Below, in pieces: positions 13,401 to 55,884 of a stretch of DNA of 64,000 nucleotides. The position numbers and the translations under genes are program-made. A model generated the notes under the pieces. It had not been told where the DNA came from, ran no database searches, and worked only from the letters and a program-made list of their open reading frames with translations. The DNA is from Thunnus maccoyii (taxonomy: Eukaryota; Chordata; Actinopteri; Scombriformes; Scombridae): positions 23,588,425-23,652,424 of the forward strand of contig NC_056546.1 in the NCBI RefSeq assembly GCF_910596095.1. Reading direction: 5' to 3'. The number at the start of each line of letters is the position of its first letter. The stretch's first letter is position 1.

Positions 13401-14695
13401 GTAAGTTCACCAAATAACGACAGAGCTGTACGGTAGTCTTTTATAGAGCGATGGTTACATGGAGAATATGTGTGACATATGGCAAGCGTATCCTGACGTG
13501 TGCTTCAGTGTTACCTGATCTTGTTGAAATGTTTTCGGCCTCAGTGGGCAAAAATATTTTGATTCGGACCCCCACCACTGAAATACCAGTAACCATTTAT
13601 CTTCTGAAGCGTTTATTCTGTCTTATCTATAGTGATTGTAGTGCTTAGTTTTGACTATTTCGTTTCCTACATATGGTTTTACATGAACTTGCAAATGGTG
13701 AGTTTTTGTCCAGAGGGAGGAGCCGCACCCATAACCATCTATCCTGTGGTTAGATCTTCCCTCATTCATCATACTGTTTTTTGGTTTTTTTGCGTTTTTT
13801 TTTTTGCTTTTTACTAGCACAGTATTACAACTGAGAGGATTCTTGTGATAAGGGCCCCATCTCTTGTAAGGTATAATGAGACCCAGAAGTGAGCTTTGTT
13901 GCTGGCTGACATGGTTGGAATAAATATCATGATATGAAGATTGTTTTTCTGATATCATAATATTACAGATGTACGCAAAATCAAATATGAAATTGCTAAA
14001 TTGATGTCAAATCCAATTAACTTTCTTCCAATATTGTGCATTACATCTGACAGAATATTTGCAACATGTAAAATGAAAACTACAATGACTTGTTTAATAG
14101 TTTCAGTTACTATTTGCTTGGAATCAATATGGACCACTGAACTTTATAAAGTGACAACATGATGTGATCAATACACAATACATTTCCAGTAAAGGATGAT
14201 AACCAATGATATTGAATTTAGGGAGGCAACTACTTACTACTTTCTATTTTCTTGAGTTATCAGTTTATCGTTTGGTCAGTAAAATGACAATAGTAAAATA
14301 AATAAGTAAAAGAAAATAGTGGAAAATTCCCAACACAAGTTCCCAAGACCCAACATGATGTCTTAAAAATGTGTTGGTTTGTTTGAACAAGCAGTCCATA
14401 CCCTAAACATGTTCAGCTTATTATCATTTAAGATAAAGAAAAGCAGCAAATATTCACATTTCAGAAGCTAGAAGTCTGTTTCTGAAAAAGGATTTAAATG
14501 GTTAAGTGGTTGTCAAAATTGCAATAGATAAATTTGCTGTCATTCTTAATCAGCTAATTCATCTCTAATTGAATTATCGTTCCGCTTTAATTAGATGACA
14601 CTCTTGTTGGTTGTTTGGTGTCTCTGAAATAAATGTGTGGAGTGAAAATTATTATGTACAATAAATATATCCCATGTCTCTCTTCAGCCAACAGT

Positions 14696-17600
14696 ATGGC
14701 ACGTCGCTCTCAGTGTTCCTCTGCTGGGGATGACCCCCTGGATCCCAACTACCTCGCTCCTCACTATCGGGAAGAGTACCGCTTGGCTATTGACGCACTG
14801 GTTGAGGAGGACTTGGAGGGATACTACGAGCTCCTCCAAAAAGTAGATGAGGTGGACTTCCTGTCCACACCTGAGATTCACTATATTCGGAGTGCTGTTC
14901 AGGTCCCTCAGCAGAGCAACCACCAGGAACACCATTTCCTAGAGACTGGGGGTGATGGCTCCTCGGACACATACTGGCCGATCCATTCGGACCTGGATGC
15001 CCCGGGCCTGGACCTTGGCTGGCCTCACCTGCATCACTTCAATGGACCCACAGAGGTCACCACTCTAATTAACCCCCCTGAGCCTTACATGCCGAGTATC
15101 AAGGAGCAGGCACGGCGACTTATTAAGAATGCTCAGCAGGTCGGTCTTTCACTTTCATTATGGTTGTAGATTTAGACATGACTAATCTTTCTCTGAAGTT
15201 ACTGAACTTATAACAATTTTGTTTTCACATCAGTCTTGTTTGTTGCTTTTATCTCCCTAGGTGATTGCCATAGTGATGGACATGTTTACTGATGTTGACA
15301 TGTTTAGGGATATTCTCAATGCTGCCATGAGGAATGTTGCCGTCTATATTATCCTAGACGAGCAGAATGCACATCACTTCATTAACATGGTGTCCAACTG
15401 CAGAATAAATCTACAGAGCATCCAAGTGAGTTCATGTTGTTTTATAAAATATATTCCTTTTGGACTGTAATAAAGCTGTATTGTTATATAACAACACAAC
15501 AGAAACAGATTTAAATTCCATTACCAACCCAGGATATTACGTTCCTTCTCCTTCCCCTCATACACTCCCAGTCAGCACAACTCCTCCACCCACCACAGAG
15601 GTTCCAACCATTTTTTGGAAAGGTTTTAAGGTCGGAACCTGAAGATTTTAATAGAAAAGTAGCAAATGAGTGTAAATATTTGGATATTTGAAAGAACTCT
15701 TGAGTGACTTCAGTAACATTCAACTAACTAGTTTTATATTCATTACTCTTTGACTACAGTTTGACTATAGAAGCAAAATAAAATATATGCCGATGCACTG
15801 TTACAGTGTGTTTTTAGATACTTAAAGGAAAAGCTTGGTGATATTCTGTGTTTTTCTTTTTTGTCACCAAATCCCACAAAAAGACCAAAACCAACAATGA
15901 ACTGATCCTATTAACAAGTATTGTCAAAAGCCTGATATAGCTTATTCCTCTGTGCTGTAGAGCTCACATTATTGAGCCACACTGTTGCACTGGCTGACAT
16001 GTTCCTTCATGATGGTAAACGCAGGCACTGTAGTATATTTTGAGTCAATCAGATATACACTGTCCTGCTGCTGTAAACACTGAGTAGTGAACCAAATGTG
16101 TATTAATCTGCAGCTCAAAATAGTCCCCAACAAATGTGCTATTTATTCCTGTTTGAATAATGTTTGATAAAAACTACAGTGCCCAGCTGTTATAAAAAAA
16201 TATTTAGCCCTTTTTTAAAAAGGACCTGTTTTGTGACCTGTTTGTGACCTGTTTTTACACATTTATTTCTTTAGTAGGAACAAATGAACTTGGGTCTGAG
16301 TGTCACAGACAGAGTATGGAAGTCAGAGGGCTTTGATAGGCAGACCAACACACTGTTGGTTTTGGTCTTTTCATGGGATTTGCTGACAATAAGGAATATT
16401 TATTATGTCACCAGCCTTATCCTTTAACTCTATCCATACTAATTGAATTTGTGAAGCAAAGTACAAGTACAGTAGCTTCACTACAGCTGTTGGTAAAAGT
16501 GACTATAGGAATAAGGAAAAAATATCTTAATGTCATAATGTCTTTTCTTTCCAAACATCACATGGTTGGTGCACACCTCCAACTGACTTGACAGAACTAA
16601 CAACCTTATCATACCTTTGCTGGACATGTGAAAATCTAGTTATTGAACAAACAACAGTGAACATTATATTTAACAACCCTTTTATCTTCATCCATCAATG
16701 TCTGTCAAGTCTGTATGAATCTTATATGCTATGTCATGAGTCATGTCATGTTTGTCTTATGTGTCACTTTTTCTTGTCTGTCATTTTCTTTACATGTTGT
16801 ATGTTATATGTATGCTTTATGTGTGATATATGCCTCTTGTATTTGCCTGTAATACTATGATGTGTTTGTTTTATATGGTTGTTTAGATGTTAGATAGACA
16901 TTAGCCATGTGGATAAATCTGGCATAAGTACATCGCAATGATGTCAATCTATGATTTGTACCTGACATACACAGTAAATATTGATAATAAAGTATTTTTC
17001 CATCATAGAAACCACAAATATTGAGCAACTTCTAAATACTGCATATTTAGCTGTGAAGAGGAACTTGAAAAACAGCCATTTTCTATCTCCCTATTTTCGG
17101 AGTGGCAGTGCTAATGCAATGCTGCCACCTGCTGTAGCTTGAATTACAATTTGGAACATGAACACCTCTGCATTTCCTAATTCTGCTCAGTATGAACCGT
17201 AGGTGATTTGATGCATGTCTTGCAGTTTCTACGTGTGAGAACAGTATCTGGCATCACGTACCACTGCCGCTCAGGGAAATCCTTCAAAGGTCAGATGATG
17301 GATCGCTTCATGTTGACAGACTGCAGGGCTGTGCTGAGTGGAAACTACAGGTGAGATTTGAAACTGCAACAGAAAGCCATACCTCTACACATTACACAAC
17401 AAAATAGTAGGAGTGATGATTTGTGATTATTTTGTGATTTTATGTTTAATTTTCTGAATTTATTTAGACACCACACTTGGTTGGACGTGAGTTTGCAATG
17501 AATTTAGTGTGTTTAGTAATTCCTTCTTATTTTCATGTCTTTGTCCAGCTTCATGTGGTCTTTTGAGAAGCTACACCGCTGTATGGCACACCTTTTCCTT

Positions 17601-20600
17601 GGACAACTTGTCTCAACTTTTGATGAAGAGTTTCGGATTCTGTTTGCTCAGTCGCAGCCGCTGATGATTGAAAATGTGCTTGCTCCAATGGAAGATTTTA
17701 ACCCTCTACAAAAGATGCAATACCCACGTGAAAGAACTTCACTGTACAGAGACCCCAGGAAGTTTCGTCCAGATGATGAACGTACAGATATGGACTGGAG
17801 AATGATGCCCCTTAAAAGGCAGGGATCCTTGCATGGCCCTGTAGATCCGTACAGTAGGTTTCCATCAGAGCAGTCACAAATGGATCCCTTGTTTGATCAA
17901 GGTCACTCCAGGATGCCTGTGATGGAAAATCCCACCTTCAAACGGCACAGTTATGCTGAAGGTACTCATGGCAGACACTCTTACCCATTCCTGCAGCAAC
18001 AGGGGTTGCCAGACCTTGAGACCCAGGGAAGGCAGTTTGACAGGGGCCAGCAGCCACATGCAGGGCCAGGACCCGAAGCAGATTACAGTGGCTATGACAA
18101 ATTTTGGAGTCGAGACAAGTCAAGTCATTCAGCAGATGAGTATTCTGAACCTGGCTTACCACAAGAGATGGATAACTTTGACCCTGTGCTTAACTATTTA
18201 TCATCTACCAGAAATGTAGAATTTGACCAGGGCTCAGAGAAATTACTACCTTCAGCAGATTTACCATTAAGTTCATCTTACCCTAGAAGACTGAGTTTAG
18301 GCCAGACATATGCATGTCAAACCTCTCCCACACCCTCAAATCCAACTGATCAGAAGCAGTTTTTCCAGGAGCCTATCACTGACTGCAAGGATCCCATGGT
18401 GAAACGGGGGCTAAGAAACTTGAGGATTAGCTCGTACCTCAGTGCATACGATAATCCAGGAGATGAAGGCCTGCCACTGGCACCACCTCAGGTACCAGAT
18501 CCCTTACAAGAACCCTCTAACCCTCCCATACAGCAAAAAGCACCAGGCATGCACTTTTCAGTTCCTAAAATCCCTCATTTCAGAGAGTTTAAGATTCCTA
18601 CTTTACGCAGGGCAAGTCAGATGCCAAGTTATGTCAAACCCACTGTGCGAGAGCAATCAAAGGAATTGCCTGATGAAAGTACTACTGTGGCAGCAGAAAC
18701 CAAAACGACTCCAACACCTTCAGAATCGTCATCCACAACTGAGGGGGACAAGACAGAGGAAGCAGAACCAAAAGAACCGAAGACTAGTGTTGTTCGAAGG
18801 GAGGAGTCGTTCCGTAGGAAATACAATGCAGCAGTACCGCGGAGCTCGAGGTTAAGATCTTCTCTGATATTCAGCTCTCTGGATCAGCATACCTCTCAAG
18901 ATACCCAAACTGCTGCAGGGCAACAGGATGAGGAGGGTGAAAAAGATGAGGCAAAACAGACAAAAGTACCTTTTGTTTCTCAGGTTTTGGGACAAAAAAG
19001 ATCCGCTGCAAGAGGACCTTTTGAATGGAGTCGTTACATAAAGTCAGCCACTGTTGATAACTCAGCACTAGAAGCTTCCAAACCAGACGATGGAACCAAT
19101 AAAGCTGAGGAGAAAGATTCATCTTCAAAAGACGAGAATTCAAACAATCCACCAGAAACCCCTGAGGTACAAGAGTCATTAAAACCATCAGATGTCCCAT
19201 CAATGCCCCAATCCAAGCCTTCTGAAGCTGAGTTGCCCAAAACTGATCAAATAGTACAACCCCCCAAATCTTTGCTCACTCCACTCTATGTAGATATGAA
19301 TGATCCTATTGAGAGGCTCAAGTTTTTCAAAGAGTTGGCAGCCAAACGCAAAGCTGCAAAGGCTGCAGGAGCTGAAAAGAGTGCAGAGAAGGGTCCAATG
19401 AAAGCACCAACTTATCTGAAAGACAACACAACTGTTAAAAATGAGGAAGTTGTACCACATGAAAAAATTGCTGATACGTCTGTCAAAAAGCAAACCGCAC
19501 AGCAGGTCAATAATGACCCCAATACATCTAAAAGCTGTGAAGAGGAACAAACCAGAGCTTCAACTGATTCAGAGAAAATAGAGATGAAGAACATCCAATC
19601 AGCAGCATCCCTGCCTGTTTCTGCAGAAACAGAAGCCCCTCAGAGTGAACCACCAGAAGACCAAAAGCTGTCAAAACCTGCTGTAAAAGAGTGCAGCCCC
19701 TGTCAGTCACCTACAACAACAAATGACACACCTGCAAATGTTCCATCTCTTGCGCAAGGTACTGATAAAAGTGAAAACACTTTGCCCCATTTCAGTCCTC
19801 AGACCACCCCAAGTCCCACAGCTTCCAGCTTTGCCCCTCTTTCCCCTCCAGCAGAGACTATATCTTCTAATGTCACCCAAGAAGACTCAAGCTTGACCCC
19901 AGCCTCCAACATGCTGTCCTCAATTTCTGACAAAATAGGAGAACAGGAATCTTTCAGTCCCTCCCCACCTGAATCCTCCCAATCAGCGGACAAAGCTTTA
20001 CAAATATCTACTGCTTCGTCTGACATGCAGACAGAATCTACTCAAGCTCCATTAGATACTGTTTTACAGTCGACTTCACCCAATACCCATTCAGTAGTTG
20101 ACTCTGCTCATGTGGAATTTGATATTTCACCTGATGCATATGCTGCTGGTTCAGTGCCCTCCTCATTAGAGTCTACTACAAAGATAAACTCTGAGGAATC
20201 TTGTACGATTTCACCTGATTCACAAAAAGATGCTCCTGAATCAGAAAACAGCCCCATTGCAGAGGAATCTGAGGTTTCTTCCAGTGTTGTTCTTGCATCA
20301 CCAAAGGATGTCAAAGCTGATAGCACACCTCAGAGCCTTAGCTCTTCATCACCCGAGTTGTGTTTACCCAATGTATCTGATCTTGAAAGTAGTAATAAAC
20401 CATACCAAAAAGAGCCCATTACTTCTACACCAGGAGACCCTTCACCTGAGCAATCAGAAACTAGGTCTCTTGTCAATCCAGACATTCCTCCTGATGCCTC
20501 CCGATCTGAAACAAGTGCATGTCTTCAAGATGCACCAACACAAGCAAACTCTCTCTCTGAACTTAACCTGACAGGATCTTGCTCTCCCACTCCTGCTGAA

Positions 20601-21429
20601 ACAGTATCATGTTCTTCTCCTATGTCTGAGTCAGTTGGATCTGTCATGTCCCCTGAGGCTGAAAGAACAGAAACGAGCATGCTTGTATTGCACAGTTCCT
20701 CAGATACTGATTCTTTATCCAATGAGACTCCAACAGACTCAAACAAAGCTCCAATGCACCCATCTACAGAATATTCTTCTAGCCCAACTGAGCCTACCTC
20801 GATAGTCACATTAGTCACAACAGAGCCTGATCTGCCAACACCTGAAGAGTCACCTGTACCTGCTGATAATAGTTATATAGACAATCAAATTGAAGTAAGC
20901 AAACAGGAATCTAATGACCAAGCAAGGCAAAATGACTGCTGCGAGGTGGCAGAGGTTGCATCAGATGAAGTTGCTCCTCTGTCACCACAGTCCAAGAAGC
21001 CAAAATCAACCCAGTCTCGCTACCACTCGTCAACAGCCAAAGTGCTCTCAAGCAGCAACCTCAGAGATGATACAAAGCTGCTGCTAGGGCAAATTTCTGC
21101 AAATAGCCAAAGCAGGAACGAGGCGACCAAAGAGTTTCCTGTCACAGATGATGAGAAAGAAGATAAAGCTGACAAAAACGCCAAAAGTGTGAAAGAAAGA
21201 AGGATTGCGTCACTTGGCAGAGGGCCGCAGAAGTCAACTGAGGAGCGCCAGGAGCTGCTGGAAAAGCTCCAGAACATGAGGAAGGAGAGGAAAGTTTACA
21301 GTCGCTTTGAGGTATGAATACATTAATAGTAAGATTGCTTCTGTGTCAGCTACTCATTAGGATACAAATTTGTTTGCCTCTGTGGTAAATCATTTTTTGT
21401 CACTTTTACTTTCACAGATGGCACCTTAA
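14696..21429 (+). CDS. fam83h: FAM83H, CK1-anchoring keratin scaffold protein
   Basis: FAM83H binds casein kinase 1 and recruits it to keratin filaments; human truncations cause amelogenesis imperfecta. Coding exons: 14696-15139, 15261-15425, 17226-17350, 17549-21311 and probably 21418-21429. The start MARRSQCSS matches human MARRSQSSS. Residues 1 to about 290 form the DUF1669 phospholipase-D-like domain (VMDMFTDVD, GKSFKG, SFMWSFEKLHR). The CK1-binding F-x3-F motif is visible as F273/F277 in DEEFRILFAQS. The rest, mostly one 3.76-kb exon, is low-complexity Ser/Pro/Glu-rich, with islands shared with human FAM83H: RSSRLRSSLIFS, SSNLRDDTK and the end MRKERKVYSRFE. About 1502 residues against 1179 in human. 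At 21311 the frame either splices to give ...RFEMAP or reads through to a stop two codons later (21315-21317). An AATAAA at 22937-22942 may be the polyadenylation signal. Confidence 0.93.
15820..16270. repeat. Dispersed teleost repeat in fam83h intron 3
   Basis: Carries phrases familiar from a common fish repeat: AAAAAGACCAAAACCAACAA, TAGCTTATTCCTCTG, CTGCTGTAAACACT and CTGCAGCTCAAAATAGTCCC. No inverted ends or open frame were seen, so the class is undetermined. The assignment rests on recollection of similar intronic sequence in other fishes. Confidence 0.45.
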
Positions 21430-43700: not shown

Positions 43701-44764
43701 CTTTAGCAATCCACTCATTTGATGTTAACAAAAATCATATTCTTTTTCGTTGCTGTCTTTTTTTTCTTTCTCTAGGCAAGACTTTGTCAATGCATACGTA
43801 GACTACATTTTCAACACATCAGTGGCTCCACTGTTTGAGTGCTTCTATGCAGGCTTTCACAAGGTGTGCGGTGGGAAAGTTCTGGAGCTGTTCCAGCCGA
43901 ACGAACTGCAGGCCATGGTCATTGGCAACACCAACTACGACTGGACAGAGCTTGAAAAGGTCTTGACAAATAAAAACAAAAATATTTCACTGATTAATTT
44001 CCAAGCTTTGTAAAATAATCTTCAGAAAGGGACGATATTCTTGGTTTTGTATCAAAATCAATCTATCATACAACACATGATTACAAAACTAAGTATCTAG
44101 AGCTAAATAAATGTTTCCACTCTTGGCTAATTAAAAAAAAAAAAAAAACACGTTATAGTAGTACGTTATAATCATTTTTTTGTAATCTCACATATGTCAT
44201 CTATTGGTGATTCATGAATGTATTTATACATGCAAACTCCTCCAGTTTTAAGTAAAAACATACACATTTCCCCGGAAATTGTCGAAGTGGGCCAAGTAAC
44301 TTTAAATGGTACAAATCATTTTTGTTTTCATTTTTCAGAGTACTGAATATAAAGGGGAGTACTGGACTGACCACCCCACCATCAGGCTCTTCTGGGAAGT
44401 GTTCCACAATCTTCCTTTAGAAAAGAAGAAACAGTTTCTCTGTAAGTGCTGCTCTCCGTATATGATTTTTTAAAAACATTGGAGAAGCTGTTGCTTTAAC
44501 AAGGTGAATTGACACAGTAGTGTAATAGTGACAAAGATGTTTCTTGTCTCTTCAGTGTTCCTCACGGGAAGTGATCGCATACCCATCTTGGGCATGAAAA
44601 GCCTGAAACTGGTAATCCAGCCCACTGGTGGAGGGGAGCATTACTTACCTGTTGCACACACCTGCTTCAACCTGATGGACTTGCCCAAGTACACGAGTCT
44701 AGAAACACTCCGCGAGAAGCTTCTACAAGCTATAGATCACAATCAAGGCTTTAATCTTGCGTGA
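34768..44764 (+). CDS. herc4: HERC4, RCC1-repeat HECT E3 ubiquitin ligase
   Basis: A cytosolic HECT-type E3 that accepts ubiquitin on a cysteine and transfers it to substrate. I assembled 23 coding exons: 34768-34993, 35078-35237, 35330-35406, 35499-35720, 35822-35913, 36469-36599, 36768-36922, 37286-37362, 37468-37592, 37711-37770, 38362-38473, 39796-39985, 40069-40241, 40345-40464, 40559-40657, 40767-40934, 41209-41352, 41815-41981, 42207-42273, 42371-42453, 43776-43959, 44339-44441, 44556-44764. They total 3144 nt, or 1047 residues (human 1057). The N-terminal third is seven RCC1 blades ([16 protein letters not shown]; later [24 protein letters not shown]). The HECT domain fills roughly residues 720-1047 ([43 protein letters not shown]). 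The catalytic cysteine is Cys1015 in PVAHTCFNL. The sequence follows human HERC4, not HERC3 (for example GGIDEEIV and QVVALDAQ). Possible polyadenylation signal AATAAA at 45536-45541. Confidence 0.97.
36021..36252. mobile_element. Fold-back repeat in a herc4 intron
   Basis: The left arm (GGCCATCATTAG ... AATTGCTGAGATATGGGGTT) is mirrored on the right (TAACCCCATATCACAGCAATT ... AATGATGG, read as its complement). The arms are about 60 bp with a ~100-bp centre. It is a small palindromic, non-coding element; target duplication not resolved. Confidence 0.6.
38600..39475. repeat. Dispersed repeat with an internal duplicated module in herc4 intron 11
   Basis: About 0.9 kb, much more GC-rich than the intron around it. 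It begins GGAATCTCTGTCTGTATGTC, followed by AACGATTCATCCTATTGACT and CACTTGGCAGGTG, text I recognise from a common teleost repeat. A module (TTAATATTAATAAA ... AATAAACAAG ... GGGCGGG ... CTTCTGGGCTCTG) occurs twice, at about 38762-38850 and 39198-39306. No coding sequence or clear terminal repeats; class unknown. Confidence 0.6.
43020..43190 (-). repeat. Inverted partial copy of the 7.8-kb teleost repeat
   Basis: Reverse complement of the 7800-8225 type: CATGCTAGCAACTC, CAGAGGTGCGTTG and AATGCTAATGTCGGCATGCT. Lies in herc4 intron 20. Confidence 0.6.
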
Positions 44765-48637: not shown

Positions 48638-49060
48638 TATATGTTGCACCAGAATATAGAGCTGTACAAATCTATGACAATATACATTGTGAATCTGAAA
48701 ATGGAGATCACTTTTAATCTGATCACTTATGACTCCCAGCAGGTTAAATGTTTGTTTTTCACACATTAAGTCTCAATTTTAATTTTGTTAAAACTATTGT
48801 GAGTTTATTGTCAAACTGTGAACTGTGTGGTGTGTACTGAACCATGAATCAGTGAGTGTATCATGTCACCCTTAATGTTCACATTTTATTCTGATATTAG
48901 ATACACACACACACACACAACCACAACAACAACAACAACAACAACCTTACAACAAAAGTAAAATGAAGTTTAATGTTTGTGATCCAGATATTCTGTAGAT
49001 CTGATTGTCTTGCCCAAATTACTGTTGACATGTTTTATTTACCTTGTTAGAAAAGTAAAC
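48638..49060 (+). repeat. Left arm of a ~420-bp inverted repeat
   Basis: Reverse-complementary to about 54872-55274 with scattered differences. Matching landmarks are ATAGAGCTGTACAAA, TGACAATATACATTGTGAAT, GAACTGTGTGGTGTGTACTG and CAGATATTCTGTA. The (AC)n/(AAC)n run at 48903-48945 corresponds to the (TTG)n run at about 54980-55007. The arms bracket two of the three 7SL genes. Confidence 0.85.
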
Positions 49061-49291
49061 GGACAGCTTTTTTCTCCTATAATTTCATCCAAAAATTGAA
49101 AGGAAAAGTTTGTAATAGTGTACAGTATAGCCTATAGTGCTGTTTATCTGTGATGTTGCATTGATTGGTGCGATTGATAGTAAGTGCTCCTCTTCTCCAG
49201 GTGGAGGCAGTGTTGGCCAGACTAAGCAGCATTGCTTTCTGAGGTTTCTTCCTGGAACATGAAGCTGTCTGTTATAAAGTGTGCAGAGTGT

Positions 49292-49591
49292 AAAAAGACT
49301 GGGTCCCGCTGTATCGCACAGGCTGCACTACAGCGTCTATTCACAGGCGCGATCCAACTACTGAGCGGCACGGGGGCTTTGACCTGCTCCGTTTCCGACC
49401 TGGGCCGGTGCACCCCTCCTCAGACGACCTGGTGGTCCCGAGCTCCCCCAGGAGCACCATATCGATACCGAACTTAGTGCGGACACCCGATCGACATAGT
49501 CCGCTGCAGTTCAGAGCTCCTGAGCTCAAGCGATCCTCCAGCCTCAGCCTCCCGGTAACTTGGATTACAGGCGCGCGCCACCGCACCCGGC
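49292..49591 (-). ncRNA. 7SL RNA (signal recognition particle RNA), copy A
   Basis: A 300-nt full-length SRP RNA gene on the minus strand. SRP pauses and targets ribosomes carrying signal peptides to the ER. The RNA 5' end reads GCCGGGTGCGGTGGCGCG (49591 downwards), the Alu domain. The S-domain SRP54-binding loop motif GGTCGGAAACGGAGCAGGTC is at 49381-49400, and GCGCCTGTGAATAG closes the Alu domain near the 3' end. A T5 run at 49292-49296 is a Pol III terminator. The middle part absent from Alu-type SINEs is present, so this is a true 7SL sequence. Upstream CRE-like TGACATCA (minus strand; plus TGATGTCA) at 49634-49641 is -43 to -50. Confidence 0.92.
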
Positions 49592-49633
49592 GAGAGACAC
49601 TTGATTCATGGGAGTTTTGGGATTTAACAAAAG

Positions 49634-49641
49634 TGATGTCA
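49634..49641 (-). promoter_or_regulatory. CRE-like box of 7SL copy A
   Basis: TGATGTCA on the plus strand, one base off the ATF/CREB consensus TGACGTCA, at -43 to -50 from the 7SL 5' end. The human 7SL gene has an ATF site close to -50. The spacing matches copies B and C exactly. Confidence 0.65.
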
Positions 49642-49857
49642 CCAAGAAGCACGTTCCAGCGCCATCTAGCTTCGAAAATGCCAACTACAGTGTTGAAGGT
49701 TCATCAAACAGGTCAACAGTTTCCCAAAGATCACTCACTGATAATGTCTCATGTTTTTAATAAAGATACATAGTTTTATAACATATCTTTATGGCCAATT
49801 GCTGTTTTGATCTATGCTCATTACCAATTTATTGATGTCATCATATATATATATATA

Positions 49858-50097
49858 CAGACGTTGACAAATTAAAGGAAAAGCTGGTACAGGTCTGACT
49901 GCTTGACCCCTACAGTGAGGGGATCTGGTGGCTCTGTTATGCTGTGGGGGGCATTTTTCTGGCATGGTTTGGGTCCACTTGTCCACTCAGAGGGAAGAGT
50001 CACTGCAAATCAACACAAAGTTGTTCTGAGTCATCACCTTTATCCTATGATGAAACATTTCTATCCTGATATGAGTGGTCTCTTTCAGGATGACAAT
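49858..50097 (+). mobile_element. Truncated Tc1-like transposon, copy in unit 1
   Basis: Starts after TA with the end CAGACGTTGACAAATTAAAG, then runs straight into the C-terminal transposase region (VMLWGAFFWHGLGPLVHSEG). The N-terminal half is missing, as in the other window copies, so they derive from one internally deleted founder. The right end is cut off at 50097 by the junction with the hairpin locus. Confidence 0.8.
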
Positions 50098-50826
50098 GAC
50101 CAGTGATGTGAACCCAGTGATGTGGCGAAAATGTCAGTCAAGTGCGCCCCGCGCAGTGCGTCAAATGTACATGAACGTACATGAATATACATAAACGTGC
50201 ATACATTTACTTAAACGTACATAAAAGTACATACATGTACATAAACGCACATAAATATACATGAACATACATAAATGTACATAAATATACATAAATGTAC
50301 ATAAACGTACATAAATGTACATAAAGGTATGCATGCAGTGAAGAAAGAAAAGTAAAGAAAATTTAAAAAAAAAATAATAAAAAAAAAAAAGCAGCATATA
50401 TACAGGCTCTGAAGCACCCAGGCTGCCTGGGCCTCCCATACCAGCACGACAGACTAGGCCAGATCTATGCACTGGCAGGGCCCCCAGGTGTCATGCATCG
50501 CGAGCTCGAGCTCAGCGGTGCACCACGAGCTCGAGCTCAGCGATGCATGACACCTGGCGGCTATCGAGGACTCCCCTCGGCTGCAGACGTGGGCCGAGGC
50601 GTGGGCTACCATGGTGCTGCAGTGCATCAGAGCCTCCACGTCTCCTGTGAGGGAGTGTGGAATGGAGATTGATGGCAGGAGGGGGTCCTATTTATAAACT
50701 CGGTTCCAAGCCTTGACGCTGTCATTCATGACGTCAAATAAGCACTGTTGTCGACTGAGAACTGATGACACATCAATATGGACATCCTCTGTGATGTCAC
50801 ATAGCCGTGACGACGAACATAAGATG
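50098..50826 (-). repeat. Hairpin locus, copy 1 (CRE, TATA, palindrome, T-tract)
   Basis: Read on the minus strand: CRE TGACGTCA (50729-50736), TATA box in GTTTATAAATAGG (TATAAA at 50691-50696), then ~180 bp GC-rich sequence. A 74-bp near-perfect palindrome (50484-50557) follows: 18 bp outer stem, GAGCTCGAGCTC inner stem, 13-nt loop and one bulged base. After a GGGAGGCCCAGGCAGCCTGG segment comes a long T-run (50376-50389). A TACATAAA-type minisatellite lies further on. The only open frame (57-61 codons) overlaps the palindrome and has no protein character. The arrangement resembles a small-RNA gene, but the function is unknown. It could also be part of an unknown mobile element. Confidence 0.55.
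50166..50330. repeat. TACATAAA-type minisatellite, copy 1
   Basis: Tandem imperfect units of ACATAAACGTACATAAATGT and variants. The same array is at about 53249-53438 in copy 2. Confidence 0.85.
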
Positions 50827-51385
50827 AAATGAAAGAGTAAAACAAACATCTGAAACTCAAATTCATTGATAAATAGAATATTTCTCACAACAACAGGTGG
50901 AGTTACGGGAAGCTTGATTAATGCCAATCACAACAGCTCCTCTCATAAGCAGCAAGATGTTTAATGAGCCAAGAGCTCCGGAGAAAACTGTTCTTCCCAA
51001 GATAAAAAAAATAAATAAATACACTTCCCTAAATATGACTATACAGCCCAAGCACACCGAATACTAACAGACAGCACCCACATTTATACAGTATGCCAAA
51101 TATGCTTTGGAGGTAAGATTTGAATTTCTGTTGCAGGAGACACTGAAATTCCTGTCACCACGTGCAGTGTGCACATTGTTAGCAGACAATTAGCATATAA
51201 TGTACAAAATATTACATGAAACCAGCAGGTTCTTGTAAATATTCGTTTTACAGAAGTAATCAACTTTAAAACATTCCCAAATTGTGTCAGTAATGTTACT
51301 AGGCTGTATGATCTGTAAACGGTGTAACTTAGGAAAAAATTGTCATAGAGTTAATATTGGATCATGAGGATGTCTTGTCATACTA

Positions 51386-51640
51386 TGGGAAAAGTGATGT
51401 CCTCCTGAGTGATGTATATCTCAGCAAAGGAGCAATTATGTGTTCTGATGTAAATTGTAATGGACATTTCTCACCCCAAAGCCCTCTGTGCTATGTGTGA
51501 TGGTATTGTGGGAGCTGTGCACGAGGCCGGAAGATAATACTTTGCTTACTTCTTCCACCACCGTAAAAACTTGTGTTATGGTATACAACAAAATAGTTAT
51601 AGCACAATATAGTTCTAGTATTATAGTGATGTGTGTCTGT
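51386..51640. other. Unique segment between duplication units
   Basis: No gene; its right part shares AATATAGTTCTAGT with the flank of 7SL copy C (about 55311-55326), so the C-type flank extends into unit 2. Confidence 0.4.
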
Positions 51641-51789
51641 GGTGCTGCATTGATTGGTGCGATTGATAGTAAGTGCTCCTCTTCTCCAGGTGGAGGCAGT
51701 GTTGGCCAGACTAAGCAGCATTGCTTTCTGAGGTTTCTTCCTGGAACATGAAGCTGTCACAGCTGTTTGTTGTAAAGTGTGCAGAGTGT

Positions 51790-52089
51790 AAAAAGACTGG
51801 GTCCCGCTGTATCGCTCAGGCTGCACTACAGCGTCTATTCACAGGCGCCATCCAACTACTGAGCGGCACGGGGGCTTTGACCTGCTCCGTTTCCGACCTG
51901 GGCCGGTGCACCCCTCCTTAGACGACCTGGTGGTCCCGAGCTCCCCCAGGAGCACCATATCGATACCGAACTTAGTGCGGACACCCGATCGACATAGTCC
52001 GCTGCAGTTCAGAGCTCCTGAGCTCAAGCGATCCTCCAGCCTCAGCCTCCCGGTAACTTGGATTACAGGCGCGCGCCACCGCACCCGGC
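51790..52089 (-). ncRNA. 7SL RNA (signal recognition particle RNA), copy B
   Basis: 300 nt, identical to copy A except for three substitutions noticed by eye (a T for A in the 3' Alu part, a C for G in GCGCCATCC, a T for C in CTCCTTAG). The 5' end is at 52089, the S-domain SRP54-loop motif at 51879-51898 and the T5 terminator at 51790-51794. The CRE-like TGATGTCA at 52132-52139 is again at -43 to -50. Upstream and downstream flanks match copy A, so A and B arose by segmental duplication. Confidence 0.92.
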
Positions 52090-52131
52090 GAGAGACACCT
52101 GATTCATGGGAGTTTTGGGATTTAACAAAAG

Positions 52132-52139
52132 TGATGTCA
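52132..52139 (-). promoter_or_regulatory. CRE-like box of 7SL copy B
   Basis: TGATGTCA at -43 to -50 from the 7SL B 5' end, same sequence and spacing as copy A. Confidence 0.65.
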
Positions 52140-52353
52140 CCAAGAAGCACGTTCCAGCGCCATCTAGCTTCGAAAATGCCAACTACAGTGTTGAAGGTTC
52201 ATCAAACAGGTCAACAGTTTCCCAAAGATCACTCACTGATAATGTCTCATGTTTTTAATAAAGATACATAGTTTTATAACATATCTTTATGGCCAATTGC
52301 TGTTTTGATCTATGCTCATTACCAATTTATTGATGTCATCATATATATATATA

Positions 52354-52798
52354 TACAGACGTTGACAAATTAAAGGAAAAGCTGGTACAGGTCTGACTGC
52401 TTGACCCCTACAGTGAGGGGATCTGGTGGCTCTGTTATGCTGTGGGGGGCATTTTTCTGGCATGGTTTGGGTCCACTTGTCCACTCAGAGGGAAGAGTCA
52501 CTGCAAATCAACACAAAGTTGTTCTGAGTCATCACCTTTATCCTATGATGAAACATTTCTATCCTGATATGAGTGGTCTCTTTCAGGATGACAATGCCCC
52601 AATATATATGTTCACTAGGGGTCACTGAATGTTTTGATGAGTATGAAAATGATGTGAATCATATGCTATGGCCCTCGCAGTCACCAGATCTCAACCCAAA
52701 TTGAACACCTATGAGAGATTTTGGACTGACGTGTTAGACAGCGCTCTCCACCACCATCATCAAAACAACAAATGAGGGAATATCGTTTAGAAGAATAG
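52354..52798 (+). mobile_element. Tc1-like transposon remnant, copy in unit 2
   Basis: Starts after TA with CAGACGTTGACAAATTAAAG and carries the C-terminal part of the DDE transposase: VMLWGAFFWHGLGP, LFQDDNAP and, after a frame change, SPDLNP. No N-terminal half and no clear right inverted end. Non-functional. Confidence 0.8.
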
Positions 52799-53178
52799 TA
52801 TAACTGACTTTTATACAAAATAAATAAATAAGTAAAAAGTGGCGATTTATTTCTTTTTATTTTAATGTAGGCTATATATTGTACATTGTTTGTATTGTAT
52901 ATTTTTTCGAATGGACTCTGAGTTTGACAATAAAGTTGACATAACATAATATAAACGTGGTCAGGACATCGATAACTAATATGCAAATAAGAATACATGC
53001 CACCTTAATGCAGAAATGACAGAACTTGTCACTCTGACACCGACCATCAGAAACCTGGATAATGTAAGACTCAAACAGGCATATCCTGAACAGGACTAAA
53101 ACCAGAACAAGTTGTACGAGGCAAACAGTGGACATGTAAAAGTGCTTAATACCAGTCTGTGTGTTGTTGACACGTTAC

Positions 53179-53940
53179 AGACCAGTGATGTGAACCCAGT
53201 GATGTGGCAGAAATCTCAGTCAAGTGCGCCCCGCGCAGTGCGTCAAATGTAGCCTACATGAACGTACATGAATATACATGAATATACATAAACGTGCATA
53301 CATTTACTTAAACGTACATAAAAGTACATACATGTACATAAACGCACATAAATATACATGAACATACATAAATGTACATAAATATACATAAATGTACATA
53401 AACGTACATAAATGTACATAAAGGTACATAAAGGTATGAATGCAGTGAAGAAAGAAAAGTAAAGAAAATTTAAAAAAAAAATAAATAAATAAATAAAAAA
53501 AAAAGCAGCATATATACAGGCTCTGAAGCACCCAGGCTGCCTGGGCCTCCCATACCAGCACGACAGACTAGGCCAGATCTATGCACTGGCAGGGCCCCCA
53601 GGTGTCATGCATCGCGAGCTCGAGCTCAGCGGTGCACCACGAGCTCGAGCTCAGCGATGCATGACACCTGGCGGCTATCGAGGACTCCCCTCGGCTGCAG
53701 ACGTGGGCCGAGGCGTGGGCTACCATGGTGCTGCAGTGCATCAGAGCCTCCACGTCTCCTGTGAGGGAGTGTGGAATGGAGATTGATGGCAGGAGGGGGT
53801 CCTATTTATAAACTCGGTTCCAAGCCTTGACGCTGTCATTCATGACGTCAAATAAGCACTGTTGTCAACTGAGAACTGATGACACATCAATATGGACATC
53901 CTCTGTGATGTCACATAGCCGTGACGACGAACATAAGATG
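53179..53940 (-). repeat. Hairpin locus, copy 2
   Basis: Near-identical to 50098-50826. CRE TGACGTCA at 53843-53850, TATAAA at 53805-53810, 74-bp palindrome at 53598-53671 with the same arms, loop and bulge, and T-tract in the A-rich segment at about 53472-53504. The minisatellite (53249-53438) and the A-rich tract differ in length from copy 1, while the promoter-like boxes and palindrome are unchanged by eye. Function unknown. Confidence 0.55.
53249..53438. repeat. TACATAAA-type minisatellite, copy 2
   Basis: As copy 1 with one or two additional units. Confidence 0.85.
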
Positions 53941-54004
53941 TAACTTAGGAAAAAATTGTCATAGAGTTAATATTGGATCATGAGGATGTCTTGTCATACT
54001 ATGA

Positions 54005-54277
54005 CTTTTTGAAGAATACTGTTCATTCCTCCAGAAGAGTTCCAGAGACTTCAGTGCCAGGGCTGAGGAACCCCATTCTTCACAAAGACATTCCCTCATT
54101 TGGTGTTTTGATGATGGTGGTGGGGAGCGCTGTCAGACCAAAATCTCCCATAGGTGTTCAATTTGGGTTGAGATCTGGTCACTGCGAGGGCCATAGCATA
54201 TTTCATACCCATCAAAACATTCAGTGACCCCTAGTGAACATATAAATTGGGGCATTGTCATCCTGGAAGAGACCACT
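54005..54277 (-). mobile_element. Tc1-like transposase 3' fragment
   Basis: Minus strand: matches the same Tc1 family as the other copies (GGGGCATTGTCATCC, CATTCAGTGACCCCTAGTGA, GTTGAGATCTGGTCACTGCG). It extends further into the transposase C-terminus, including CTCCAGAAGAGTTCCAGAGA. Truncated at both sides. Confidence 0.75.
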
Positions 54278-54659
54278 CCAATGGGTCACCAGATAAATCT
54301 GAGGGGTCATGAGATGATTAATGGGAGAGGAAAGAAGAAAAAACAATGTTCTGATACACAAATCTTTTTTCAGATTTTGAACTTTTTCTCTAATTATTGA
54401 TTTTTGGTGAATTATTGGATCATCTGAACATTTATTGAAATGAAACCATGTGAGAAGTTTAGAGGGAAAAATCACTATTTGGTAGAGCTGTTAACAACTC
54501 ATAGACATCTGAAATGTGACCCCGATTACACAATGCTTTTTGTAAGACATCAAAAGTCAAAAAGGTTGGAAAACACTGGTTTCATCTTTAACAATGTGTT
54601 GTATTTAAAAAAGTTCTTATATTATCCATTGTGTCAAATCTTCATCTGAAAAGTAACTA

Positions 54660-54842
54660 AAGCTGTCAAATAAATGTAGTGGAGTAGAAAGTACAATATT
54701 TCTCTCTGAAATGTATGAAATATAGTGGACTGGAAGTATAAAGTTGCATCAAATGGAAATACTCAAGTTAATTACAAGTACCTCAAAATTGTACCTAAGT
54801 ACAATACTTGAGTAAATGTACTTAGTCACTTTGCATCACTGA
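54660..54842. mobile_element. Half of a hAT-type MITE
   Basis: Ends AATACTTGAGTAAATGTACT followed by TAGTCACTTTGCATCACTG, the familiar right end of an abundant fish MITE. The left half contains GTAGTGGAGTAGAAAGTA. The matching opposite end was not found, so the element is probably truncated. Confidence 0.55.
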
Positions 54843-54871
54843 GTTTTTCCCCAGATTTTTGAATGAAGTTT

Positions 54872-55274
54872 TCTAAGACAGAAAATAAAATATGTCCACA
54901 CTGATTTGGGCAGGACAATCAGATTACAGAATATCTGGATTACAAACATTTAACAATGTTTTTTTCCATCTTGTTGCAAGGTTGTTATTGTTGTTGTTGT
55001 TGTTGTGTGCGTCTAATATCAGCCTAAAATATGAACATTAAGGGAGACTTGATACACTCAGCTCATGGTTCAGTACACACCACACAGTTCACAGTTTGAC
55101 AATAAACTCAGAATTTTTTTTAACAAAGTTGAATTTGAAAGTAAAGGTATGAAAAGCAAAACTTTGACCTTTTGGGAATCATAACTGATCAGATTAAAAA
55201 CTGATCTCTATTTTCAGATTCACAATGTATATTGTCATAGTTTTGTACAGCTCTATATTGTGGTGCAACATATT
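54872..55274 (-). repeat. Right arm of the ~420-bp inverted repeat
   Basis: Reverse complement of 48638-49060. Its outer end touches the 3' flank of 7SL copy C. Confidence 0.85.
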
Positions 55275-55533
55275 GTTTCACCTCCAGTGAATATGGGATG
55301 GTATATAGTTCAATATAGTTCTAGTGTTACAGTGATGTGTGTCTGTGGTGCTGCATTGATTGGTGTGATTGATAGTAATTACTCCTCTTCTCCAGGTGGA
55401 GGCAGTGTGGGAGAGACTAAACAGCATTGGTTTCTGAGGACTTCCTGGAACATAAAACTGTGTTAACATGTAAAGACATAATGTTTGAGTGCGTGTGCTG
55501 TCACAGCTGTTTGTTGTAAAGTGTGCAGAATGT

Positions 55534-55834
55534 AAAAAAGACTGGGTCCCGCTGTATTACTCAGGCTGCACTACAGCGTCTATTCACAGGCGCGATCCCA
55601 CTACTGAGCGGCACGGGGGCTTTGACCTGCTCCGTTTCCGACCTGGGCCGGTGCACCCCTCCTTAGACGACCTGGTGGTCCCGAGCTCCCCCAGGAGCAC
55701 CATATCGATACCGAACTTAGTGCGGACACCCGATCGGCATAGTCCGCTGCAGCTCAGAGCTCCTGAGCTCAAACGATCCGCCAGCCTCAGCCTCCCGGTA
55801 GCTTGGATTACAGGCGCGCGCCACCGCACCCGGC
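55534..55834 (-). ncRNA. 7SL RNA (signal recognition particle RNA), copy C
   Basis: About 300 nt, full-length, more diverged from A and B than they are from each other. 5' end at 55834 (GCCGGGTGCGGTGGCGCG), SRP54-loop motif at 55624-55643, T6 terminator at 55534-55539. At one site where A and B differ from human 7SL (CTATGTCGATCGGG) copy C has the human-like CTATGCCGATCGGG. Its promoter box is the perfect CRE TGACGTCA at 55877-55884 (-43 to -50), with TTAAAAG near -25 to -30 that could serve as a TATA-like element. Of the three, C looks the most likely to be the ancestral active gene; that is inference. Confidence 0.93.
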
Positions 55835-55876
55835 AACTGTTCTCTGCACTCATCGGGCTTTTAACTTCGACACAGA

Positions 55877-55884
55877 TGACGTCA
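55877..55884 (-). promoter_or_regulatory. Perfect CRE of 7SL copy C
   Basis: TGACGTCA at -43 to -50. A second CRE-like GGTGACGTCT lies about 13 bp further upstream (from 55896). Confidence 0.75.

What the first reader, a model, noticed from the sequence alone, without database searches (positions are those of the whole stretch)
49292..55834. Cluster of three full-length 7SL (SRP RNA) genes in one 6.5-kb stretch of a fish genome
Each copy is about 300 nt on the minus strand, keeps both Alu- and S-domain landmarks and ends in a T-run. Copies share more than 150 bp of 3' flank beyond the terminator, so they multiplied by DNA duplication, not by RNA-mediated retroposition, which is how most mammalian extra 7SL copies arose. 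Fish 7SL loci seem to be rarely annotated, and protein gene finders report spurious ORFs here.
Basis: partly seen in the sequence, partly recalled or inferred. Interest (0 to 1): 0.8.

Follow-up and report, generated by a model that had tools for sequence, protein, structure and literature searches.

The report
Three 7SL genes seeding a pseudogene array
The window holds three real, full-length copies of the gene for 7SL (the RNA core of the protein-export particle SRP) in a fish; they belong to a family of at least 39 copies in that genome, one of the three looks like a fully working gene, and the other two sit near the root of a decayed 174-kb array of copies on another chromosome whose mutations are oddly one-sided.

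Summary
Three full-length 7SL genes lie on the minus strand at 49293-49591 (A), 51791-52089 (B) and 55536-55834 (C), 271.7-278.5 bits against Rfam Metazoa_SRP (cut-off 70). No sign of retroposition was found. As a kind of locus it is ordinary for a fish: the same genome holds at least 39 full-length copies on six contigs, and a 2025 paper reports 24 7SL genes in miiuy croaker, eight adjacent.

C has the canonical promoter (CRE TGACGTCA at -50, TATA-like box at -29), and its body is 1-4 bases from genes on contig C17. A and B are a young tandem pair with a one-base CRE variant. On the tree they sit at the base of a ladder: two copies 0.65 Mb away, then a 19-copy, 174-kb array on C4. All 21 of those have a broken CRE; 17 array copies counted have 5-8 extra non-standard RNA pairs.

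Unexplained: on the branch to the array 11 of 15 substitutions are C>G on the 7SL-sense strand, 8 after T, none G>C. This resembles strand-coordinated cytosine deamination; one repeat family, exploratory, no enzyme shown.

The parts
55536..55834 (-). 7SL/SRP RNA gene C, canonical copy
   Evidence: RF00017 278.5 bits, full length; body 1-4 differences from the four C17 copies
55877..55884 (-). CRE/ATF site TGACGTCA of gene C at -50 to -43
   Evidence: same form at -51/-50 in 13 of 39 genomic copies
55858..55863 (-). TATA-like TAAAAG of gene C at -29
55534..55539 (-). T6 Pol III terminator of gene C
51791..52089 (-). 7SL/SRP RNA gene B
   Evidence: RF00017 278.4 bits, full length; one extra non-standard pair (113-236) against C
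52132..52139 (-). CRE variant TGACATCA of gene B at -50 to -43
51790..51794 (-). T5 terminator of gene B
49293..49591 (-). 7SL/SRP RNA gene A
   Evidence: RF00017 271.7 bits, full length; two extra non-standard pairs (69-274, 113-236) against C
49634..49641 (-). CRE variant TGACATCA of gene A at -50 to -43
49292..49296 (-). T5 terminator of gene A
49133..50826 (.). duplicated unit, A copy (gene A with both flanks)
   Evidence: 49133-50098 matches 51622-52596 at 98%, 50098-50826 matches 53180-53940 at 95%
51622..54003 (.). duplicated unit, B copy; 51322-52559 and about 53314-53943 recur in the C4 array
55304..55461 (.). 3' flank of C shared with A and B
   Evidence: 89% to 51598-51757; 55328-55461 is 86% to 49133-49268
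53510..53943 (.). segment X, non-7SL part of the unit used as a second test of the C>G pattern

Best explanation
This is a small cluster of genuine Pol III 7SL (SRP RNA) genes that grew by DNA duplication. C is most likely a working gene with a hybrid promoter: an upstream CRE/ATF site, a TATA-like box, internal elements and a T-run terminator. A and B are a recent tandem duplicate of another 7SL lineage with a one-base-altered CRE; they probably fold and may be transcribed, but more weakly. A unit of the A/B type was copied about 0.65 Mb along the same contig and from there to contig C4, where it multiplied among transposon-like sequence into a 174-kb array of 7SL pseudogenes. Shown here: gene identity, promoter states, shared flanks, tree order. 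Inferred: transcription strength, direction of spread, loss of function of the array.
For: Three full-length covariance hits. 39 full-length copies found: C14 5, C4 19, C17 4, C21 8, C7 1, C13 2. CRE TGACGTCA at -51/-50 in 13 of 39 (window C, 4 of 4 C17, 8 of 8 C21); TGACATCA in 5 of 39 (A, B, C7, both C13); CGACATGA in 20 of 39 and TGACATGA in 1 (together all 19 C4 and both distal C14 copies). Rfam scores: 13 intact-CRE copies 267-282 bits, 19 C4 copies 223-253. Extra non-standard pairs against C: 0-1 in the 13 intact-CRE copies, 5-8 in 17 C4 copies (35 of 39 copies counted). IQ-TREE of all 39: B and A basal, then C14 24.30 Mb, C14 24.27 Mb, then the C4 clade (100/99). The C4 units contain the A/B unit colinearly.
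Against: No expression data. TGACATCA may still bind ATF/CREB factors, so A and B could be fully active; B scores as high as C. Score and promoter do not match strictly: the distal C14 copy at 24.30 Mb has a broken CRE but 268.2 bits, above the lowest intact-CRE C21 copy (267.1), and C7 with TGACATCA scores 275.4. The forks 90/83 and 94/81 are modest, and the array could have sent copies back to C14. Window B shares G at position 241 with the array, so exchange between copies may blur the ladder.
Confidence: 0.8

Rival explanations
1. All three window copies are equally functional housekeeping 7SL genes, kept for dosage.
For: All three score 271.7-278.5 bits and keep a TATA-like box and T-run. 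A published fish shows expression peaks at several 7SL genes.
Against: A and B share the altered CRE, carry 1-2 extra non-standard pairs and group with decayed copies.
Confidence: 0.15
2. The copies are retropseudogenes made from 7SL RNA, as most extra mammalian copies are (mammalian fact recalled).
For: None found; multiple copies alone would fit.
Against: Promoter and 5' flank were copied with the gene (A/B 510 bp at 99.6%; A/C7 512 bp at 88%), the 3' flank is shared beyond the terminator, and no poly(A) follows. Target-site duplications were not searched for.
Confidence: 0.01
3. Assembly artefact: A and B, or the C4 array, are false duplications.
For: A and B are 98% alike; three C4 copies are 3845 bp apart with identical 7SL bodies.
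Against: A and B differ by a gap of about 580 bp and one of about 500 bp; 18 of 19 C4 units are distinct sequences.
Confidence: 0.03

Closest known systems
Miiuy croaker 7SL gene family (PMC11893794; section 7 and passages seen)
   Same: Multi-copy fish 7SL family (24 genes) with eight adjacent genes on one chromosome; ATF sites and A/B boxes mentioned; the paper also infers duplication routes other than retroposition from higher counts in zebrafish and rainbow trout.
   Different: What I saw of it does not describe a broken-promoter array of 7SL pseudogenes or a one-sided C>G pattern; there a PIF/harbinger-derived gene lies next to the most active copy.
Human RN7SL1/2/3 on chromosome 14 (location recalled, not from a call)
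   Same: A limited set of functional 7SL genes with a hybrid promoter (upstream ATF/CRE and TATA-like site, internal boxes; PMC8362101 and PMC10498592, passages).
   Different: The many extra human copies are mostly retroposed and lack the upstream promoter (recalled); here the extra copies carry it, intact or decayed.
Germline APOBEC-like clusters in hominids (PMC4864454; passages seen)
   Same: Strand-coordinated C mutations fixed in evolution.
   Different: There mostly C>T at CC/CCC, attributed to APOBEC3G; here C>G at TC, in one fish repeat.

Membership tests
Metazoan SRP RNA (7SL), Rfam RF00017 | Full-length covariance match above the gathering score | tested here: met
   Three hits, 1-299 of 299, 271.7-278.5 bits against 70
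Metazoan SRP RNA (7SL), Rfam RF00017 | Alu and S domains with consensus pairing | tested here: met
   Alignments; of 120 consensus pairs 19 are non-standard in C and in all four C17 copies alike; A has 2 and B 1 more
Metazoan SRP RNA (7SL), Rfam RF00017 | Binds SRP9/14, SRP19, SRP54 and SRP68/72 | not testable with these tools
   Needs protein or cell experiments
7SL hybrid Pol III gene | CRE/ATF site near -50, gene C | tested here: met
   TGACGTCA at -50
7SL hybrid Pol III gene | CRE/ATF site near -50, genes A and B | tested here: inconclusive
   TGACATCA at -50, one base off; binding unknown
7SL hybrid Pol III gene | TATA-like box near -28 and a terminator of at least four T | tested here: met
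   All three window genes
[quoted passage not shown]
   Not located separately; implied only by near-identity of the body
7SL hybrid Pol III gene | Transcribed by Pol III | not testable with these tools
   No RNA or ChIP data
7SL retropseudogene | 3' poly(A) and no copied promoter | tested here: not met
   A and B share 510 bp of 5' flank; no A-tail after the T-run
7SL retropseudogene | Target-site duplication | not tested
   No search was made for it
AID/APOBEC-type mutation cluster (for the C4 array) | Strand-coordinated C mutations with a preferred 5' base | tested here: met
   C4 stem 11 C>G, 0 G>C, 8 of 11 after T; but segment 52560-53180 does not follow
AID/APOBEC-type mutation cluster (for the C4 array) | A deaminase active in the germ line | tested here: inconclusive
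   NAD1-like exons on C3, C4, C10 and C20; the AID search was uninformative; activity not testable

The most novel reading that the evidence does not exclude
In this fish a 7SL gene unit escaped from the window cluster and became a pseudogene array that was mutated in the germ line by a strand-specific cytosine-attacking process (C to G, TC context, above all TCG). That would be a kataegis-like, AID/APOBEC-type process in an animal group without APOBEC3 (recalled), perhaps through a NAD1 enzyme or an AID able to act on 5-methylcytosine.
Probability: 0.3. Interest if true: 0.65.

Novelty: new member of a known kind. Interest (0 to 1): 0.38.

Why it matters
The cluster itself adds one more fish to a known picture: many 7SL genes, in clusters, multiplied as DNA with their promoters. 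Its use is that it shows several stages in one genome, from an intact gene through an altered promoter to a promoter-broken array, so the effect of the CRE on 7SL output can be tested between natural copies. If the one-sided C>G pattern proves general, it would point to germline DNA deamination in teleosts, which could be looked for in any fish repeat.

Tried and rejected
Retroposition: rejected on shared 5' flank and no poly(A). The C4 copies as a working variant SRP RNA: disfavoured, because the extra non-standard pairs are mostly C-G turned to G-G; I did not test compensation systematically. CpG methylation decay as the main cause of the array's changes: disfavoured, because at TCG sites of the unit C>T is seen in 1 copy at one site while C>G is seen at 11 of 12 sites with A as reference, 10 of 12 with B; in segment X, 2 of 6 TCG sites on the strand opposite 7SL do carry C>T. 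A general C>G bias: disfavoured, since C/G differences are 1 of 10, 0 of 20, 4 of 71 and 4 of 43 in four paired segments of the C4 stretch, 3 of 27 between A and B, 7 of 50 in the window's inverted repeat, 2 of 15 between the 3' flanks of C and B, 19 of 296 in C21 flanks and 1 of 10 in C21 bodies. Against a uniform process: segment 52560-53180 has C>G 4 and G>C 8, and the changes that the C4 copies share with both distal C14 copies include only 3 C>G of 46, with 2 G>C (many of those 46 lie past +450 where A and C7 align poorly). COX5B by Pfam over the genome rang nowhere, so that neighbour rests on a motif. The AID Pfam search rang nowhere and says nothing. Paper searches on 7SL copies, clusters or arrays gave one closely relevant paper; a promoter search gave two reviews of which I saw passages; searches on deaminase clusters listed no fish germline case; an Asian seabass repeat paper (passages) mentions only SINE/7SL transcripts.
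Full report
What is there. Rfam's covariance models find three full-length Metazoa_SRP genes in the window and no other RNA gene above threshold: A 49293-49591, B 51791-52089, C 55536-55834, all on the minus strand, 271.7, 278.4 and 278.5 bits against a cut-off of 70. Each ends in a T-run (A and B five, C six). The gene order cox5b - 7SL cluster - dnajc12 also fits: a COX5B-like zinc-binding exon near 46.24 kb and a DNAJC12-like HPD exon near 60.17 kb, both minus strand, recognised by motif; a DnaJ match below its cut-off supports the second.

How the copies are related. A and B are one tandem duplicate: 49133-50098 matches 51622-52596 at 98% and 50098-50826 matches 53180-53940 at 95%, with two gaps of about 0.5-0.6 kb setting them apart. 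They share 510 bp upstream at 99.6%. C shares with them the gene and 136-160 bp of 3' flank at 86-89%; no match was found between its 600-bp upstream and theirs, nor with that of C17, and only a 40-bp match at 80% with six of the eight C21 copies. The body of C differs from the four C17 copies by 1-4 of 299 bases and from B and A by 9 and 10; A and B differ by 3. On the tree with flanks C stands on a branch of its own, apart from C17 and from the other 34. So C and the A/B pair are different, older lineages, one of them freshly doubled. I found nothing that points to retroposition; target-site duplications were not searched for.

The family in the genome. The window is C14:23588425-23652424 of a 782-Mb genome. 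A DNA search with gene B finds 41 matches, 39 of them full-length (296-301 bases): C14 5, C4 19, C17 4, C21 8, C7 1, C13 2; the other two look like pieces of one deleted copy on C4. The tool calls such counts lower bounds, though here it scored 40 of 40 candidates. All 39 were scored by covariance model over: C17 276.6-282, window 271.7-278.5, C7 275.4, C21 267.1-273.8, distal C14 268.2 and 251.9, C13 248.7 and 241.9, C4 222.8-253.3 bits. The C13 pair lacks three bases in the first Alu-domain hairpin.

Promoters. Human 7SL is driven by internal boxes plus an upstream TATA-like and ATF/CRE site (PMC8362101, passages). The same upstream layout is found here: TGACGTCA at -51/-50 in 13 of 39 copies (window C, 4 of 4 C17, 8 of 8 C21); TGACATCA in 5 of 39 (A, B, C7, both C13); CGACATGA in 20 of 39 and TGACATGA in 1 of 39 (together 19 of 19 C4 and both distal C14 copies). 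TGACATCA is what deamination at the central CpG would give (inference). A TATA-like [CT]AAAA[CG] at -29/-28 is kept in 38 of 39. C and the C17 copies share an AAAAGCC form, the other lineages AAAACT.

Decay and promoter. On the Rfam structure 19 of 120 pairs are non-standard in C and in all four C17 copies. Beyond those, the 13 intact-CRE copies have 0-1, B 1, A 2, the distal C14 copies 2 and 4, and 17 of the C4 copies 5-8, mostly C-G pairs turned to G-G (35 of 39 copies, the four of other length left out). The link with promoter state is not strict: the C14 copy at 24.30 Mb has a broken CRE and 268.2 bits. A tree of all 39 copies with 150-bp flanks puts B and A at the base of a ladder: C14 24.30 Mb, C14 24.27 Mb, then all C4 copies (100/99; lower steps 90/83, 99/97 and 94/81). 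The C4 units carry the window unit colinearly, with open frames between that look like LINE and RTE elements (recognised from memory). My reading is that an A/B-type unit seeded the C4 array, and that the array is a field of pseudogenes.

An oddity that I cannot explain. Relative to A, B and C7, the array's own changes are lopsided. Of the C4 majority changes not shared with either distal C14 copy, 11 of 15 from -470 to +770 are C>G on the 7SL-sense strand, 8 of them after T; none is G>C. One of the 11, position 241, is also G in window B. Of the changes shared with C14 24.27 only, 2 of 5 are C>G; of those shared with both distal C14 copies 3 of 46, with 2 G>C. With B as reference 10 of 12 TCG sites in the unit are changed to TGG in some or all C4 copies, against 0 of 4 on the other strand (the C14 24.27 copy has one); in the non-7SL segment X (53510-53943) 6 of 10 against 0 of 6; in 52560-53180, 2 of 5 against 1 of 4, and that segment has more G>C (8) than C>G (4). 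Over five segments: C>G 52, G>C 22 (binomial p 0.0006); TCG 18 of 28 against 1 of 15 (Fisher p 0.0003). Some C/G sites still vary among array copies, so the process, or exchange between copies, outlasted the founding. Controls show C/G differences of 1 of 10, 0 of 20, 4 of 71 and 4 of 43 in paired C4 segments, 3 of 27 between A and B, 7 of 50 in the window's inverted repeat, 2 of 15 between 3' flanks of C and B, and 19 of 296 in C21 flanks. All p-values are exploratory and uncorrected, and array copies are not independent. The pattern is like that left by cytosine deamination of single-stranded DNA followed by base removal and bypass (general knowledge). Zebrafish AID can deaminate 5-methylcytosine, unlike several other bony fish AIDs, and ray-finned fish have the uncharacterised NAD1 (PMC8201067, passages); this genome has NAD1-like exons on C3, C4, C10 and C20. 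Hominids show fixed strand-coordinated clusters ascribed to APOBEC3G, but mostly C>T (PMC4864454, passages). No link between an enzyme and the array is shown here, and consensus errors at methylated sites are not fully excluded, although several changed sites are not CpG.

What is known. Miiuy croaker has 24 7SL genes, eight adjacent on one chromosome, and copy number differs widely among vertebrates (PMC11893794, section 7). So a 7SL cluster in a fish is a known kind of thing. My searches listed no description of a promoter-broken 7SL array; most subscription papers are not in that library.

Verdict. Observation confirmed; interpretation right on DNA duplication, not borne out on equal standing and on rarity. 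Interest is modest for the cluster, raised a little by the array and its one-sided mutations.

Noticed in passing
G000:C4:3653375-3827307 (loci L040, L023-L039; the last fragment lies beyond them): A 174-kb array of 19 full-length 7SL copies plus one deleted copy, with strand-sided C>G changes at TC/TCG.
   Followed up: partly
window 48639-49054 and 54869-55273: An inverted pair of about 420 bp at 83% identity flanks the genes A, B and lies downstream of C; its nature is unknown.
   Followed up: no
window 52571-52796 and 54075-54278: An inverted pair at 86% identity that reads like remnants of a Tc1/mariner-type transposon (recognised from memory, not searched).
   Followed up: no
window 50163-50329 and 53255-53436: A short tandem repeat with a period of about 10 bases (TACATAAA-like) inside each copy of the duplicated unit.
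   Followed up: no
L041 and L042 (C13:19189207 and 19208274): Two near-identical 7SL copies 19 kb apart that lack three bases of the first Alu-domain hairpin; likely pseudogenes.
   Followed up: partly
window 51849 (position 241 of gene B): Gene B already carries one T[C>G]G change that is shared with the C4 array but not with gene A.
   Followed up: partly
window 14633-15166, 17520-21314, 43729-44010, 44513-44761: Neighbouring coding exons: SACK1 domain (two pieces, the second in a 1265-codon open frame) and HECT ubiquitin-ligase exons.
   Followed up: no
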